Shown in pieces: positions 9,508-33,198 of a stretch of 37,612 nucleotides of DNA. Each line of letters starts with the position of its first letter. The first letter of the stretch is position 1. Below the pieces are notes generated by a model, which worked only from the letters and a program-made list of their open reading frames with translations, did no database searches and was not told the DNA's origin. Source of the DNA: Gammaproteobacteria bacterium (GTDB taxonomy: Bacteria > Pseudomonadota > Gammaproteobacteria > Ga0077536); NCBI GenBank assembly GCA_023257255.1, contig JALRCR010000010.1:1-37612 (forward strand), in the 5' to 3' direction. The position numbers and the translations under genes are program-made.

Positions 9508-10668
9508 ATGAAACAGAGTGAACAACGAATCCTGACCACGCACGTCGGTAGCCTGCCCCGCGCCCGGGAGCTGAGCGACCTGCTCATTGCCGACGAGGCT
9601 CGCCAGCCCGTCGACCATGCCCGCCTTGAGGCGTTGGCGGCCGAAGGCGTCCAAAGCGTAGTCGCCCGTCAGGTCGGCGCCGGGCTGGACGTGATCAACG
9701 ATGGCGAGCAGCCGCGGGTTGGCTTCCAGACCTATGTCAGCCAACGGCTGGAGGGCTTTGGTGGCTCCAGCATTCGCGAACCTTTCAAAGACTTCGCCGA
9801 CTATCCCGACTTCGCCGATATCTGGGTCAAACGCGGCATGGTGATGTCCAAGGTCTTCGACGCCCCGACCGCCCAGCAAGAGGTGGTGTACAAGGATCTG
9901 GCCCCGGCGACCCGCGAATGCGACCTGTTCGATGCCGCACTGGCCCAGCAGTCCGGCAAATATGTAGAGCCCTTCATGACCGCCGCCTCGCCCGGCATCG
10001 TCTGCACCACGCTGCGTAACGCCTGGTATGACAGCCATGAGGCCTATGTCCGGGCGGTCGCCCGCGAGCTCCGCAAGGAATACGAACTTATCGTCAGCCG
10101 CGGCTATGTGCTGCAGCTCGACTGCCCCGACTTGGCGATGGAATGGCACGGCATGTTCCAGAACGGCAGCCTGAGGCAGTTTCAGGACGCCGTGGCCATC
10201 CACATCGACGCGATCAACGAGGCGCTGGTGAACATTCCGCGCGATCGGGTGCGCTTGCACCTGTGCTGGGGTAACTACGACGGCCCGCACGACTGCGACG
10301 TGCCGTTGGAAGACATCCTGCCGATCGTTTACGGCGCCAAAGTTGCGGCCTTTTCGGTGGAATTTGCCAACCCGCGCCACCAGCACGAATACGCCGCCAT
10401 CAAGAAAAATCCCTTGCCGAAGGACGTCATCCTGATCCCCGGCGTCATCGATTCCACCGTCAACTACATCGAGCACCCGCAGGTGGTATGCAACCGCATC
10501 CTCGAAGCCGTGGCCGTCACCGGCGACCGCGAGCGCGTGATTGCAGGCTGCGACTGCGGATTTGGCACCTTTGCCGGCTGGGAAATGGTCGCCGCGTCGG
10601 TGGTGTACAAGAAATTCGAGGCACTGGCCGAAGGCGCTCGCCTCGCTTCCCGTCAACTTTGGGGCTGA
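9508..10668 (+). CDS. Short MetE-like methyltransferase (C-terminal catalytic domain only)
   Basis: A 386-residue relative of the catalytic half of cobalamin-independent methionine synthase. Full MetE is about 750 residues, so the N-terminal half is absent. The zinc ligands of the family can be placed at H251 and C253 (HLCWGN), E285 (FSVEFAN) and C348 (AGCDCGFGT). The start QRILTTHVGSLPR is typical of the short family. Relatives include folate-independent methionine synthases, epoxyalkane:coenzyme M transferases and uncharacterised methyl- or thiol-transferases, so the substrate is open. GAGGGGAG precedes the ATG. The stop is 17 bases before a DUF485 gene, making it the first gene of a symporter operon, which suggests a catabolic rather than a housekeeping role (inference). 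Confidence 0.85.
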   Translation: MKQSEQRILTTHVGSLPRARELSDLLIADEARQPVDHARLEALAAEGVQSVVARQVGAGLDVINDGEQPRVGFQTYVSQRLEGFGGSSIREPFKDFADYPDFADIWVKRGMVMSKVFDAPTAQQEVVYKDLAPATRECDLFDAALAQQSGKYVEPFMTAASPGIVCTTLRNAWYDSHEAYVRAVARELRKEYELIVSRGYVLQLDCPDLAMEWHGMFQNGSLRQFQDAVAIHIDAINEALVNIPRDRVRLHLCWGNYDGPHDCDVPLEDILPIVYGAKVAAFSVEFANPRHQHEYAAIKKNPLPKDVILIPGVIDSTVNYIEHPQVVCNRILEAVAVTGDRERVIAGCDCGFGTFAGWEMVAASVVYKKFEALAEGARLASRQLWG

Positions 10669-21434: not shown

Positions 21435-22004
21435 TCAGCCGCCCGGTTCGGGGAAGAGCGCTTCCAGCCCCTGAAGATCGGATTTGCCCGCCAGCAGTTC
21501 GGCCCTCGGCAACCCCGCAAGCTCGTGGGGAAACACCAGCCATGCCGCAGTCTCGCGCAGATAGAAATCAGGCGTCAGATCCACCTTGCGATTGTCGGGT
21601 TTGTACCAAGGCGCAGCGAACCTGATGTCCCGCGGCAAACTGGGTCCAAGCTGGGCCGTCAGCGCATCCAGTAGCGCCTTGAAGCTGCGCCCCGAATCAA
21701 ATACGTCATCCACCAGCAGCAGCGCGCTGTCGGCGCGTGCATGGTCAATCACGTAGTGCAGGCCGTGCACCTGCACCAGACTGGCCTGCTCCCCAATGCC
21801 TGTATAGCTGGCGGTGCGCACGGCAATATGGTCGGTACTCGCGCCCCGGTATTCAAAGTATTCCTGAACGGCAATACCCACTGGCGTACCGCCGCGCCAG
21901 ACCCCGATGATGAAATCAGGACGAAAGCCGGCGTCATAAATTCGCGCCGCCAGTAGAAAGGAGTCGCGCAGCAAATCGCCGGCAGTAATAAAGATTTTTT
22001 CCAT
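21435..22004 (-). CDS. Phosphoribosyltransferase-family protein (predicted purine-type)
   Basis: A 189-residue type I phosphoribosyltransferase fold. The PRPP-binding loop LLLVDDVFDSGRS lies at about 96-108, and an early FIIGVWRGGTPVG forms the second phosphate-contact loop. A YKPDNRKVDLTPDFYL segment near the C-terminus resembles the hood of xanthine/hypoxanthine-type enzymes. It matches the general predicted-phosphoribosyltransferase group rather than a clear Hpt, Gpt or Apt, so the base is not assigned. It may salvage purines in the cytoplasm. It is transcribed away from the tRNA gene. Confidence 0.85.
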   Translation of the reverse strand: MEKIFITAGDLLRDSFLLAARIYDAGFRPDFIIGVWRGGTPVGIAVQEYFEYRGASTDHIAVRTASYTGIGEQASLVQVHGLHYVIDHARADSALLLVDDVFDSGRSFKALLDALTAQLGPSLPRDIRFAAPWYKPDNRKVDLTPDFYLRETAAWLVFPHELAGLPRAELLAGKSDLQGLEALFPEPGG

Positions 22005-22136: not shown

Positions 22137-22213
22137 GCGCCTATAGCTCAGTTGGATAGAGTACCTGGCTTCGAACCAGGTGGTCGGGAGTTCGAGTCTC
22201 TCTGGGCGCGCCA
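22137..22213 (+). tRNA. tRNA-Arg (anticodon UCG)
   Basis: A 77-base cloverleaf. The acceptor stem pairs GCGCCTA (22137-22143) with TGGGCGC (22203-22209), discriminator G, then an encoded CCA. The anticodon stem CCTGG/CCAGG encloses CTTCGAA, giving anticodon TCG, which reads CGA (arginine). The T-arm is GGGAG-TTCGAGT-CTCTC with one wobble pair. It is intact. Its 3' side opens onto a small patch of repeats and accessory genes, a position often used by integrating elements, but I found no integrase and no copied tRNA 3' end downstream. Confidence 0.96.
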
Positions 22214-22565
22214 AATTCTTGTTCAAATTCAACGCGCTGGCATGGCGCTCGAACCGGGGTTCTGTTTCAGCACCACCAGTGCCGGCGTTTTACCGGACAT
22301 TTACGGTCAGCGTAAAAATTGTTCGGTCTTACGCTACGCCCAAGCGATTCTTCGAATCTTTACGCTGACTCCAAACTGCTGAGATCGGCTTCGAGCGATG
22401 CGCCGGGCGGCAGGGCTGCCAGCGCAAAACACCCGCAGCATCGGGCACCGATCACTGCAGGGGTGTTGCGAGAAACGCGAGCAACCCTGCCGGCAGCAGT
22501 CGAAGCGAGCTATTCTTGGGCACAGACTTCATCTGACTAAAGCGCTTACGCGAGCGCTGAACCAC
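22214..22565. other. 352-base gap after tRNA-Arg
   Basis: Apart from the 78-bp inverted-repeat element at 22299-22376 I see no gene, RNA or terminator here. An open frame extends upstream from the 172-aa gene (from 22398), but its composition is not protein-like. The stretch just before that gene (22381-22560) is GC-rich and has no obvious ribosome site. Confidence 0.6.
22299..22376. repeat. Inverted-repeat element, copy 1 (78 bp)
   Basis: This copy aligns without gaps to the element at 23131-23208; I count about 63 of 78 positions identical by hand. Its outer arms, ATTTACGGTCAGCGTAAAAA and the complement of the right end, share the exact core GTCAGCGTAAA. The pattern (a GGxCAGxGTAAAAA motif facing its own complement) is reminiscent of short non-coding repeats spread by transposases acting in trans; that assignment is an inference. 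It lies 85 bases past the tRNA. Confidence 0.8.
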
Positions 22566-23084
22566 ATGCCTCGATCACTCGACATTGCACAGCTCTCGCA
22601 GCTGCTCACGCAGGGTATCGGCGTCGCACCCGACTATCGTCATGTTGCCAAGGACGTCGCGCCCGGAGACATGGTGCAAACGCGCGCAGCGTTGCTTAAG
22701 TGGTACGACATCCATCCTCGCGCGCGACCCATCCCGCTTGCGGTCAGCGCGCTCGCGCGCGCAGCCGTTGAATCCGGGCGGCTGGCGATGCACGGCCTCG
22801 GGTTCGTCGTGCTACATCGCTGTGATGCAGATTTCTATTTCCTGATTGCCTGCACCTGGCGCAACCAAAACGAGCTCTGGGAAACGGTCTGGTACAAGAA
22901 CGGCGATGGGATGGACGACTTCACCGTGTTTCCGCGGGATCCCGCGCATCTTCCCACCTACTGCGTCTGGGAGCTGGTACCCATCTGGCATGAACAGCAG
23001 GCCTGGAGCCGCTTTCTGAGCACCGACCGAAGCCTCAGCAACATCGTCGAGTGGTCAGAACAGCTGTATCGCGGCAGCGCCTGA
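22566..23084 (+). CDS. Hypothetical protein, 172 aa (not recognised)
   Basis: I do not recognise this protein. It has 172 residues, no signal peptide and no membrane segment, and is rich in Trp (for example TWRNQNELWETVWYKN), acidic and histidine residues. Features that could help a search are the helical N-terminus DIAQLSQLLTQGIGVAPDYR, the HGLGFVVLHRCDADFYFLIA strand-like stretch and CVWELVPIWHEQQAWSRFL. Composition and codon use look like a real protein. I start it at ATG 22566, where protein-like sequence begins, although no strong ribosome site is visible. It lies between two copies of the same inverted-repeat element, so it may have arrived with or near them. Confidence 0.7.
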   Translation: MPRSLDIAQLSQLLTQGIGVAPDYRHVAKDVAPGDMVQTRAALLKWYDIHPRARPIPLAVSALARAAVESGRLAMHGLGFVVLHRCDADFYFLIACTWRNQNELWETVWYKNGDGMDDFTVFPRDPAHLPTYCVWELVPIWHEQQAWSRFLSTDRSLSNIVEWSEQLYRGSA

Positions 23085-23130
23085 TTCGGCTCGCCGAAGG
23101 GCGGCCGGCAATTTGGGGTAGGAGCATCAC

Positions 23131-23208
23131 ATTTAGGGCCAGCGTAAAAATTATTCAGTCTTACGCTGGCCCCAAGCGGTTCCTCGAGTTTTTACTCTGG
23201 CCCCAAAT
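23131..23208. repeat. Inverted-repeat element, copy 2 (78 bp)
   Basis: The left arm ATTTAGGGCCAGCGTAAAAA (23131-23150) matches the complement of the right arm (23189-23208) at 18 of 20 positions. An inner, perfect 12-bp pairing also exists: GGGCCAGCGTAA (23136-23147) with TTACGCTGGCCC (23161-23172). So the left arm can fold with either of two partners. It is about 81% identical to copy 1, in the same orientation. A gene fragment begins directly inside its right arm. Confidence 0.85.
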
Positions 23209-23362
23209 TCCTGCGCATGGCGCTGATAAACGCTTCCTGCAGGGTCGCGATGGTATTGATCGAGGCCACATCAATGCCAAGTTCAACAATGGTCCGGGGA
23301 ATGACCAGGAACAGGCCAGAGATAACGGTCTCGCAGCCCATGAGGTTTGCGGCCTTCGGGAG
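23192..23362 (-). pseudogene. Fragment of an RsbR/RsbS-type STAS-domain gene
   Basis: On the minus strand 57 codons read open from 23362 to a TAA at 23194-23192. The translation (PKAANLMGCETVISGLFL, then IPRTIVELGIDVASINTIAT and LQEAFISAM) looks like the C-terminal half of a stressosome-type STAS protein, where an AxxLxGxxVxxxGIxP segment precedes a TxxxLGxD turn. The domain's N-terminal half, including the phosphorylated Ser/Thr loop, is absent, and a TAA lies immediately before the open stretch. Both ends fall within or beside inverted-repeat elements. A 50-residue product could start at the internal ATG (23341), but it would be an incomplete domain. I read it as a relic. Confidence 0.6.
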
Positions 23363-23365
23363 TTA

Positions 23366-23416
23366 GGGGTCAGGGTAAAAATTCTGAGAAAGGATTTGTA
23401 TTTTTACTCTGACCCC
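23366..23416. repeat. Inverted-repeat element, copy 3 (51 bp)
   Basis: GGGGTCAGGGTAAAAAT (23366-23382) faces ATTTTTACTCTGACCCC (23400-23416) across a 17-base loop; 16 of 17 arm positions pair, and the odd one is a G-T wobble. The arms share the GG(T/C)CAGxGTAAAAA core with copies 1 and 2, but the middle differs and is shorter. It lies between the STAS fragment and the end of the GDP-mannose-dehydratase-like gene, and its RNA hairpin might slow transcription leaving the polysaccharide cluster. Confidence 0.8.
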
Positions 23417-23435
23417 AGATGTAGGCGCGTTTGCG

Positions 23436-24398
23436 CTAGGTCCGCTGCCTGCTTGCGAGCTCAACGCGCACCATTTCCCGCGCCACATCGCGCATCCGGA
23501 AGGCGGCTTGCCAGCTCAGCGTTCGCTCGGCGCGCGCCGGATTACCCTGACTCCATTTCAGGTCGGACGGACGTAGCAGCCTGGTGTCGATGTCCACATG
23601 CCCACGCCAGTCCAGATCCAGACTGGAAAACACTGCCTCGACAAAGGCCTCGAGCGAATTGGCTTCGCCGGTGGCAATGACGAAATCTTGCGGCTCGTCG
23701 GTTTGCAGCATCCGCCACATGGCCTCGACGTACTCTGGCGCCCAGCCCCAATCGCGCACGATATCCAGACGCCCCAGGGCGAGCCGTTGGGTGCTGCCCA
23801 GCGCGATGTCGCAGGCGGCGGCAATGATTTTGCGGGTTACGAAACGGGACGGACGCAAGGGTGATTCGTGATTAAACAAAATACCGTTGCAGGCAAAGAG
23901 CCCATAGGCTTCGCGGTAGTTAGCCACCAGCCAATGCGCAGAGGCCTTGGCCACCGCATAGGGACTCCGCGGTGCAAACGAGGTGCTCTCGTCAGCGGGC
24001 AGGCTCATTTCGCCAAAGCATTCGCTGGAGCTTGCGTGATACAGCCGAGTCGGGCGCTTCAGTAGACGAATGGCCTCCATCAAGTTGAGCGCGCCCAACA
24101 GCATGCTTTCCAGCGTTTCGGCCGGTTGGTCGAAAGACAGACCGACCGAACTCTGTCCAGCAAGAAAGTAGATCTCGTCGGGCTGGCAGTCGTTGACGAC
24201 CGAGAACACGCTGCGGAAATCGTTGGGCGCCATCGAGCGCAGCGTCACTTGCGCGTGGATGCCCAGCTGGTGAAGACCGCTGAAGCTTGCGATCTGGGCA
24301 TCGCGGGAGGTGCCCCAAACTTCATAGCCCTTTTGCAGCAGCAGGCGCGCCAGATAGGTGCCATCCTGTCCGGAAACGCCACAGACCAGCGCTTTCAT
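23436..24398 (-). CDS. GDP-mannose 4,6-dehydratase-like NAD-dependent sugar dehydratase
   Basis: A short-chain dehydrogenase-fold sugar-nucleotide enzyme of 320 residues, somewhat shorter than typical Gmd (about 345-370). The NADP-binding start is KALVCGVSGQDGTYLARLLL, as in Gmd. The SSSECFGE segment and the SPYAVAKASAHW stretch carry the Ser/Tyr-xxx-Lys catalytic set, and NHESPLRPSRFVTRKI corresponds to the Gmd NHESPxRGxxFVTRKI motif with the RGE part changed. It would convert GDP-mannose, or a related NDP-hexose, to a 4-keto-6-deoxy sugar. The true start is the ATG at 24398, overlapping the preceding gene as ATGA, not a further upstream one. No reductase for a GDP-4-keto sugar is obvious beside it. 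Confidence 0.82.
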   Translation of the reverse strand: MKALVCGVSGQDGTYLARLLLQKGYEVWGTSRDAQIASFSGLHQLGIHAQVTLRSMAPNDFRSVFSVVNDCQPDEIYFLAGQSSVGLSFDQPAETLESMLLGALNLMEAIRLLKRPTRLYHASSSECFGEMSLPADESTSFAPRSPYAVAKASAHWLVANYREAYGLFACNGILFNHESPLRPSRFVTRKIIAAACDIALGSTQRLALGRLDIVRDWGWAPEYVEAMWRMLQTDEPQDFVIATGEANSLEAFVEAVFSSLDLDWRGHVDIDTRLLRPSDLKWSQGNPARAERTLSWQAAFRMRDVAREMVRVELASRQRT

Positions 24399-25519
24399 TG
24401 CCGTAACATCGCGTGATAACCCTTTAACGTCTCTTCCGCACACCGCCGCCAGGAGAACTCAGCGCAACGCGCCAGGCCGCGTCGCGTGAGCTCGCGACGC
24501 TCGTCGTCCGAATTGAGCACCCGCTCCAGCGTCTCGCGCAGCGCCTCATCGAAGGCCGGGTCGAAAGAGGCTGCCGCGTAACCCACCACCTCAGGGATCG
24601 AGCTCGTGTTGCTGGCGACTACCGGGCAGGCTACCGACATCGCTTCCAGCGGGGGAATCCCAAAACCTTCGTACATCGACGGAAACACGAAGACCGCTGC
24701 GTGGCGGTAGCATTCCGCCAGCGCCGCATCGCTTCCGTCCAGTTGGCGCACAGCGTCCGCAACCCCCAGTTCCTGGAGGTGCGCAATCTCGTCAGCGCTG
24801 AACTTGCCGCCCCCAAAACAAAGCACCCCGAAATGTTCGCGCAGCCAAGGGGAGGCGGCATAGGCCTTGATCATGCCCCCGAAATTCTTGTAGCCCGGCC
24901 GGCGTCCGACGAACAACAGATACGGCCGGTCACCGCCGAAAAGCCGGCGCCGGAAGTCGACTGGACCCGCAGTCGCCGGCAGGTCCTGCATGGAATCGAA
25001 GCCCAGCAGCGTGACGGATACCCGACTTTCGTCCACCGGGTAGGTCGCGAGAAGGTCCCGTTTAGTGTGCTCGGAAATACAGAAGATGTGGTCGGCTTTC
25101 TGCACCGCCAGACGCTTCATTTTCGCAATGAAGTTGCCGGGCGGAAAATCCTGTGGAAACCGTTCCTGAATCAGGTCGTAAACCGTCACGGCCACCTTGG
25201 CCCGCGCCGGCGACCGAGGAAAGGCGTGGTAGTAGGTCTTGTGGACGATGTCTGGCGCGAGTCGCCGCTGGCTCCGGTCAGCTAGCGCGGCACCTAACAG
25301 ACGGCGCACCAGCGACATGCCGCGCGGGTCGGCCACCCGCTGCCCGATCACCATGCCTGCCGGTAGTTGGTCGAGATAGGCATTGATATGCAGCGGTGCG
25401 GCGACCCTGATTTCTAAATCGCCAAGACGCGGCAGTTCTGCCGCTATCCCGGCGAAGTAACGGGAGATGCCGCCGTAGGCCTGCACGCCGAAAATCTGGC
25501 TGTCGAAACAAATACGCAT
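24395..25519 (-). CDS. Glycosyltransferase family 4 (GT-B fold)
   Basis: A retaining glycosyltransferase of 374 residues that would add one sugar to the O-unit at the cytoplasmic face. The N-terminal Rossmann domain begins MRICFDSQIFGVQAYGGISR. The C-terminal donor-binding domain has LLFVGRRPGYKNF and the GT4 EX7E motif within FPSMYEGFGIPPLEAMS. An upstream in-frame start (25534) is possible, but the ATG at 25519 has GAAGAGAG just before it and the family N-terminus right after. The product's sugar donor cannot be read from the sequence. It ends overlapping the Gmd-like start. Confidence 0.9.
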   Translation of the reverse strand: MRICFDSQIFGVQAYGGISRYFAGIAAELPRLGDLEIRVAAPLHINAYLDQLPAGMVIGQRVADPRGMSLVRRLLGAALADRSQRRLAPDIVHKTYYHAFPRSPARAKVAVTVYDLIQERFPQDFPPGNFIAKMKRLAVQKADHIFCISEHTKRDLLATYPVDESRVSVTLLGFDSMQDLPATAGPVDFRRRLFGGDRPYLLFVGRRPGYKNFGGMIKAYAASPWLREHFGVLCFGGGKFSADEIAHLQELGVADAVRQLDGSDAALAECYRHAAVFVFPSMYEGFGIPPLEAMSVACPVVASNTSSIPEVVGYAAASFDPAFDEALRETLERVLNSDDERRELTRRGLARCAEFSWRRCAEETLKGYHAMLRQ

Positions 25520-32898: not shown

Positions 32899-33198
32899 GA
32901 AGCAATCCGCCGAACGCAAATCGTGCTGGCGGAAGCCTGCGCTACCGGTAGCTTAGGTCTCATGAAAGATTCCCTCACAAAAGTACTTCGTTGCGAATGT
33001 CTTGTGCACAGTCTCGTCGCCAACGTCCCGGGGTCCAGACTCCCGTGCGTCCGCGGCGGCAAAAGACACCACCGCTTTCGTCACGCCGGATAGAAGCCGT
33101 TCTTGATTTAGTGCGGGATCGCGGCTTTTTACGCTGGCCGAGGGTCCGCCAACAAGCGCCCCTTAAACGCGGCGCACACTGGGCAGGGGTTTGGGTAA
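32899..33198. other. 300-base gap between the methyltransferase and rfbF
   Basis: The gap holds a 14-base half-element (33126-33139) and a weak 75-codon open frame (32975-33202, minus) that overlaps the methyltransferase stop as ATGA. The predicted peptide is Arg-rich with no recognisable domain, so I do not call it a gene. This gap probably contains the promoter of rfbF, but I could not pick one with confidence. Confidence 0.5.
33126..33139. repeat. Partial copy of the inverted-repeat arm
   Basis: The 14 bases TTTTTACGCTGGCC are the exact complement of the left-arm core of copy 2 (23137-23150). No partner arm is visible within 100 bases, so it may be a decayed copy. It lies in the polysaccharide cluster, about 10 kb from the others. 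Confidence 0.5.

What the first reader, a model, noticed from the sequence alone, without database searches (positions are those of the whole stretch)
22299..23208. Two 78-bp copies of a repeat element flank an unknown gene next to tRNA-Arg
The copies at 22299-22376 and 23131-23208 align without gaps at about 81% and point the same way. Between them is only a 172-residue gene that I cannot assign. This resembles a small mobile cassette at a tRNA border. Each copy is an inverted repeat, and copy 2 can fold in two alternative ways.
Basis: partly seen in the sequence, partly recalled or inferred. Interest (0 to 1): 0.6.

Follow-up and report, generated by a model that had tools for sequence, protein, structure and literature searches.

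The report
Transposon-end repeats bracketing a relocated gene
The two repeats are members of a genome-wide family of small hairpin elements whose ends match those flanking a single resident HUH (RAYT/TIRYT-type) transposase gene; the gene between them sits in a different, also element-bracketed place in a sister species, which suggests that such elements can carry single genes around.

Summary
In detail: 22299-22376 and 23131-23208 are same-direction palindromic copies (81%) flanking a real 172-aa gene (22566-23084) next to tRNA-Arg. A third, shorter copy was missed (23362-23420). All belong to a dispersed family of ~70-bp elements with ends GGGGTCAGAGTAAAAATT (68 end sites in this genome at up to 3 mismatches, control 3). 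The same ends flank the genome's only detected IS200-like/REP-associated tyrosine transposase gene (contig C504). This is the published TIRYT/TIRtron kind (end consensus GGGGWSAS). In sister genome G005 the tRNA-Arg site carries a tyrosine-integrase gene instead, and the 172-aa gene lies at another site, between a flavin-reductase and a CitMHS/ArsB-type transporter gene, again between element ends. That second site holds a deleted TIRtron in G000 and elements only in G001. An independent case: in G001 a DUF1810 gene sits between two same-direction elements, with homology to the G000/G005 copies confined to the inter-element stretch; there the gene sits elsewhere without elements. Best reading: transposase-less passenger-gene cassettes built from TIRYT ends, comparable to mobile insertion cassettes. 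The repeat identity is firm; that the elements moved the genes is inferred. The tRNA is probably incidental.

The parts
22137..22213 (+). tRNA-Arg (TCG); in sister genomes G005 and G003 followed by a tyrosine-integrase gene
   Evidence: ARAGORN
22299..22376 (+). copy 1 of the palindromic element (70-bp core 22303-22372, ATTT/AAAC outside), degenerate ends
22566..23084 (+). 172-aa passenger gene of unknown function; homology to the G005 copy covers 22466-23094
   Evidence: AlphaFold2 pLDDT 82.6, no PDB match at E<=0.001
23131..23208 (+). copy 2 of the element (70-bp core 23135-23204), same orientation as copy 1, with an internal third end giving an alternative hairpin
23362..23420 (.). third, shorter element (51-bp core 23366-23416), conserved at the orthologous place in G005; synteny with G005 to the right begins at its edge
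21435..22004 (-). left flank: phosphoribosyltransferase gene, syntenic with tRNA-Arg in G005 and G003
23436..24443 (-). right flank: GDP-mannose dehydratase-like gene, 98% identical in G005

Best explanation
The repeats are MITE-like derivatives (about 70 bp, terminal inverted repeats GGGGTCAGnGTAAAAATT) of a TIRYT-type element, a RAYT-like HUH (Y1) transposase gene flanked by the same inverted ends. [Shown: family, ends, resident transposase.] Where a gene lies between two such elements, the outer L end and outer R end together form a larger element with the same terminal repeats and a passenger gene in place of the transposase, about 0.8-0.9 kb like the TIRtron itself. [Shown: anatomy.] The 172-aa gene arrived beside tRNA-Arg in this lineage, and between a flavin-reductase and a transporter gene in the sister, as such a bracketed cassette. 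[Inferred from non-syntenic placement.] The most likely mover is the transposase acting in trans on the L...R ends, presumably through single-stranded hairpin ends. [Inferred, untested.] Recombination between element copies is the alternative mover.
For: Dispersed family, 68/39/56/81 end sites in G000/G005/G003/G001 against 3-4 control hits; most elements are exactly 70 bp with a conserved interior. One Y1_Tnp gene in G000 (E 1.6e-14; 233 aa; SNHVH, LWEGRF, YIELNP) between the same ends, an 823-bp unit, also present in G001 (826 bp, 87% aa). The 172-aa gene is non-syntenic in G005 yet bracketed by a complete element and a degenerate end; that site holds a ~300-bp deleted TIRtron in G000 and elements only in G001. 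Independent case: the DUF1810 gene of G001 C54 between same-direction elements, homology confined to the inter-element stretch (L182:1451-1890; elements end about 1434 and start 1894), at a site with one element in G000, elements only in G005 and half an element in G003, while G000 and G005 hold the gene elsewhere without elements.
Against: Only two gene cases and four MAGs. Both elements at the window are degenerate (ACGGTCAG..., AGGGCCAG...), so the unit may no longer be mobile. The 172-aa homology stops about 90 bp short of copy 1 and 37 bp short of copy 2. No clean pre-integration site at base resolution for the cassette: at tRNA-Arg the sister has an integrase gene instead. Copies 1 and 2 are no closer to each other than to other family members, so they need not have moved together. 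The transposase of the TIRtron type was not found in G005. No movement has been observed.
Confidence: 0.6

Rival explanations
1. Bystander repeats: TIRYT elements accumulate in permissive gaps, often at gene 3' ends, and simply landed on both sides of genes that had moved by other means (horizontal transfer, island exchange). The elements did not move the gene.
For: Elements cluster and recur at the same gaps in several species; some element-flanked blocks appear syntenic (G000 C173 and G005 C735 show the same element spacing); REPs are known to sit close to gene 3' ends (PMC3733652). Copies 1 and 2 are not closest relatives.
Against: Two unrelated genes are bracketed by elements at their non-syntenic positions, one with borders within about 17 and 4 bp, and the 172-aa gene is bracketed at both of its places.
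Confidence: 0.3
2. Homologous recombination between element copies (cassette exchange) relocates or swaps what lies between ends, without transposase action.
For: At the flavin-reductase/transporter site the same two outer ends hold different contents in G000, G005 and G001; flanking elements lie in direct orientation.
Against: Longest identical runs are only 13 bp (copy 1/copy 2) and 16 bp (G001 pair), short for RecA-dependent recombination, though copies may have been identical when it happened.
Confidence: 0.25
3. A tRNA-integrated mini-island left by a tyrosine integrase at tRNA-Arg.
For: The same tRNA-Arg is followed by a Phage_integrase gene in G005 and the homologous stretch in G003.
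Against: No integrase and no second copy of the tRNA 3' end in the window; the elements are a genome-wide family unrelated to the tRNA.
Confidence: 0.05
4. Assembly or binning artefact: contig misjoined at the repeats.
For: G000 is a fragmented MAG (549 contigs, 87% complete, 6% contamination).
Against: Copies share at most 13 identical bases in register, far below an assembly k-mer; both flanks match the same sister genome at 92-94% nt; the G005 contig shows an analogous arrangement independently.
Confidence: 0.05

Closest known systems
TIRYT / TIRtron (Di Nocera et al. 2013, PMC3733652; subclass 2.1 of Quentin et al. 2018, PMC6006769)
   Same: RAYT-like HUH tyrosine transposase of ~235 aa with NHVH/YIELNP motifs, flanked by long terminal inverted repeats containing GGGGWSAS (here GGGGTCAG), with a dispersed family of repeats in the same genome, singly, as dimers and in clusters.
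   Different: Here some elements bracket a passenger gene found at different loci in related species; the passages read do not describe passenger genes.
Mobile insertion cassettes (MIC; e.g. MIC231 with IS231A; mic-qnrD, PMC3913671)
   Same: Passenger gene between IS-type inverted ends, no transposase inside, a possible source of transposase in trans elsewhere in the genome.
   Different: The IS231A family uses a DDE transposase (own knowledge) and mic elements show target duplications; here the ends belong to an HUH/Y1 element, each border is a whole 70-bp element rather than a single end, and no target duplication was seen.
REP/REPIN-RAYT systems (e.g. PMC3116915, PMC2817692)
   Same: Non-autonomous short palindromes, single-copy vertically kept RAYT-like gene.
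   Different: No GT[AG]G foot on a short hairpin; the palindrome is formed by the two ends of a 51-78-bp element.

Membership tests
TIRYT/TIRtron element family | RAYT-like Y1 HUH transposase gene in the genome | tested here: met
   PF01797 E 1.6e-14, 233 aa, motifs NHVH, LWEGRF, YIELNP; NCBIfam REP_Tyr_transpos 76.3 bits, just under its cut-off of 80
TIRYT/TIRtron element family | transposase gene flanked by terminal inverted repeats with GGGGWSAS | tested here: met
   ends at C504:9689-9706 and 10494-10511; G001 C353 likewise
TIRYT/TIRtron element family | the repeats in question carry the same ends as the transposase gene | tested here: met
   window copies have 2 mismatches to the end consensus on each side
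TIRYT/TIRtron element family | C-terminal helix-turn-helix extension of the transposase | tested here: inconclusive
   Pfam scan at E<=5 lists Y1_Tnp only; the C-terminus was not modelled
canonical REP/REPIN | GT[AG]G foot at a short hairpin | tested here: not met
   consensus starts GGGGTCAG; hairpin formed by element ends
mobile insertion cassette (MIC) | passenger gene bracketed by ends of an autonomous element, no transposase inside | tested here: met
   22303-23204 holds the 172-aa gene only; same ends as the C504 transposase unit
mobile insertion cassette (MIC) | found inserted at more than one site | tested here: met
   tRNA-Arg site in G000, flavin-reductase/transporter site in G005
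mobile insertion cassette (MIC) | target-site duplication | tested here: inconclusive
   no clean empty site for the cassette; none necessarily expected for HUH transposition
mobile insertion cassette (MIC) | mobilised in trans by the matching transposase | not testable with these tools
   needs an assay
tRNA-integrated island | integrase gene and duplicated tRNA 3' end | tested here: not met
   no integrase in the window stretch, but present in G005 at the same tRNA

The most novel reading that the evidence does not exclude
A TIRYT/RAYT-type transposase, of a group usually regarded as moving only tiny repeats, mobilises single host genes as cassettes bracketed by pairs of its 70-bp palindromes, reshuffling genes such as the 172-aa gene and a DUF1810 gene among sites in this genus.
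Probability: 0.35. Interest if true: 0.75.

Novelty: new variant of a known kind. Interest (0 to 1): 0.5.

Why it matters
RAYT/TIRYT enzymes and their repeats are widespread, but direct evidence for what they move is scarce. If their ends can carry passenger genes, they become gene-shuffling agents, and comparing gene positions bracketed by their ends in related genomes offers a direct test of their activity.

Tried and rejected
Looked for a tRNA-type att duplication in the window: none. Looked for the gene on plasmids and for the 22299-23208 stretch in phages: no match. Searched for the exact end sequence in papers: only unrelated primer-type hits among those listed. A fold search of the passenger protein gave no significant PDB match, so its function stays open. 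I first thought the TIRtron had moved as a unit between G000 and G001; the right flank (flavin reductase) is the same in both, so it looks vertically inherited. A synonymous-divergence comparison (passenger dS 0.37; neighbours 0.09-0.79) is too scattered to date the move.

Full report
Observation. The two copies (22299-22376, 23131-23208) are real, ungapped at 81%, in the same direction, with only the 172-aa gene 22566-23084 between them, downstream of tRNA-Arg at 22137-22213. Both are palindromic; copy 2 has two competing hairpins because an extra end-like motif (CTTACGCTGGCCCCAAG) lies inside it. A third, shorter element with near-perfect ends lies at 23362-23420 (core 23366-23416).

What the repeats are. 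Genome-wide the end motif GGGGTCAGnGTAAAAATT occurs 68 times at up to 3 mismatches in this MAG (control 3), 39 times in G005, 56 in G003 and 81 in G001. In a search of 58 relatives the exact motif was found only in four genomes of the genus, this one included. Most complete elements are exactly 70 bp with a conserved interior, framed by ATTT...AAA. The genome has one detected Y1_Tnp (PF01797) gene, on contig C504, 233 aa with NHVH, LWEGRF and YIELNP, and the same ends flank it (9689-9706 and 10494-10511). G001 has the same unit (87% aa identity). This fits published TIRYT/TIRtrons: RAYT-like genes flanked by long terminal inverted repeats with consensus GGGGWSAS and moderately abundant repeat families (PMC3733652; subclass 2.1 in PMC6006769). 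Canonical REP features (GT[AG]G foot) are absent.

The gene is elsewhere in the sister. In G005 (same genus; orthologues on both sides of the window site are 98-99% identical in protein) synteny from the left stops 13 bp after tRNA-Arg, where a tyrosine-integrase gene follows; G003 shows the homologous integrase stretch. Synteny from the right starts at element 3. The 172-aa gene (81% identity, dN/dS 0.24) lies on G005 contig C531 between a flavin-reductase and a CitMHS/ArsB-type transporter gene. There it is followed by a complete element in the same relative orientation as copy 2 and preceded by a degenerate end. At that same site G000 has a ~300-bp internally deleted transposase unit between orthologous outer ends, and G001 has elements only.

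An independent case. Tracing other G000 elements into relatives showed that G001 contig C54 holds element - DUF1810 gene - element - GGDEF/PAS gene - element, all three elements in the same direction. At this site G000 has one 70-bp element, G005 elements only, and G003 half an element. G000 and G005 carry the DUF1810 gene at another, mutually syntenic place with no element in the fetched flanks. Homology between the G000 and G001 copies covers L182:1451-1890, the elements ending at about 1434 and starting at 1894; in G001 the element supplies the gene's last codons and stop.

Interpretation. Shown: family, ends, resident transposase, anatomy, and non-syntenic placement of two genes bracketed by elements. 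Inferred: that the bracketing elements were the vehicle. As a rough expectation from about 25-35 element loci per ~3,500 genes (an assumed gene number), a given gene would have elements in both adjacent gaps with a probability near 1e-4; clustering and hot spots raise this, so chance accretion remains a serious rival. Transposase action in trans is preferred over recombination because element copies share only 13-16 identical bases in register, but this is weak evidence.

Function of the passenger. Homologues are rare: hits in 3 of 369 genomes of the class (including this one), plus an Acidobacteriota MAG and Plantactinospora. The model is confident (pLDDT 82.6) but has no significant solved-structure match. 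The two class homologues examined lie next to an msrA-like gene (named by own reading) without these elements, so the family is not tied to them.

Distant homologues (20-22% over the alignment) in G001 and G003 are flanked by a different repeated motif, CTGGGACAGnCATCGAATT, in one orientation only; unexplained, noted as a lead.

Noticed in passing
L062:1-100 and 750-810; L063:2001-2062 and 2709-2727: A second repeat motif, CTGGGACAGnCATCGAATT, flanks a distant relative of the 172-aa gene on both sides in G003 and G001; similar motifs occur in G000 contig C503. Possibly another transposase-associated repeat family.
   Followed up: partly
L078:2476-3348: Tyrosine integrase gene directly downstream of the orthologous tRNA-Arg in G005 (homologous stretch in G003), absent in G000: this tRNA is an integration site for an unrelated element.
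   Followed up: partly
window 23213-23362: Stretch between copy 2 and element 3 encodes on the minus strand a fragment (...VIPRTIVELGIDVASINTIATLQEAF...) that looks like the remnant of a STAS-domain protein (own reading); no Pfam match.
   Followed up: partly
window 23110-23124: AATTTGGGGTAGGAG just upstream of copy 2 looks like a further degenerate element end.
   Followed up: no
window 33128-33139: Isolated half-site TTTACGCTGGCC resembling one element end, without a partner.
   Followed up: no
L149 (G003 C48:2600-5000): At another element site G003 carries ~1.7 kb with a DUF4177 gene, an unassigned gene and an IS fragment near element ends; G000 has only elements there. Possible third cassette-like case, but the ends are degenerate.
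   Followed up: partly
L163:603-1557 (G001 C61): A gene on the minus strand lies between a complete element and a further single end; placement in relatives not checked.
   Followed up: no
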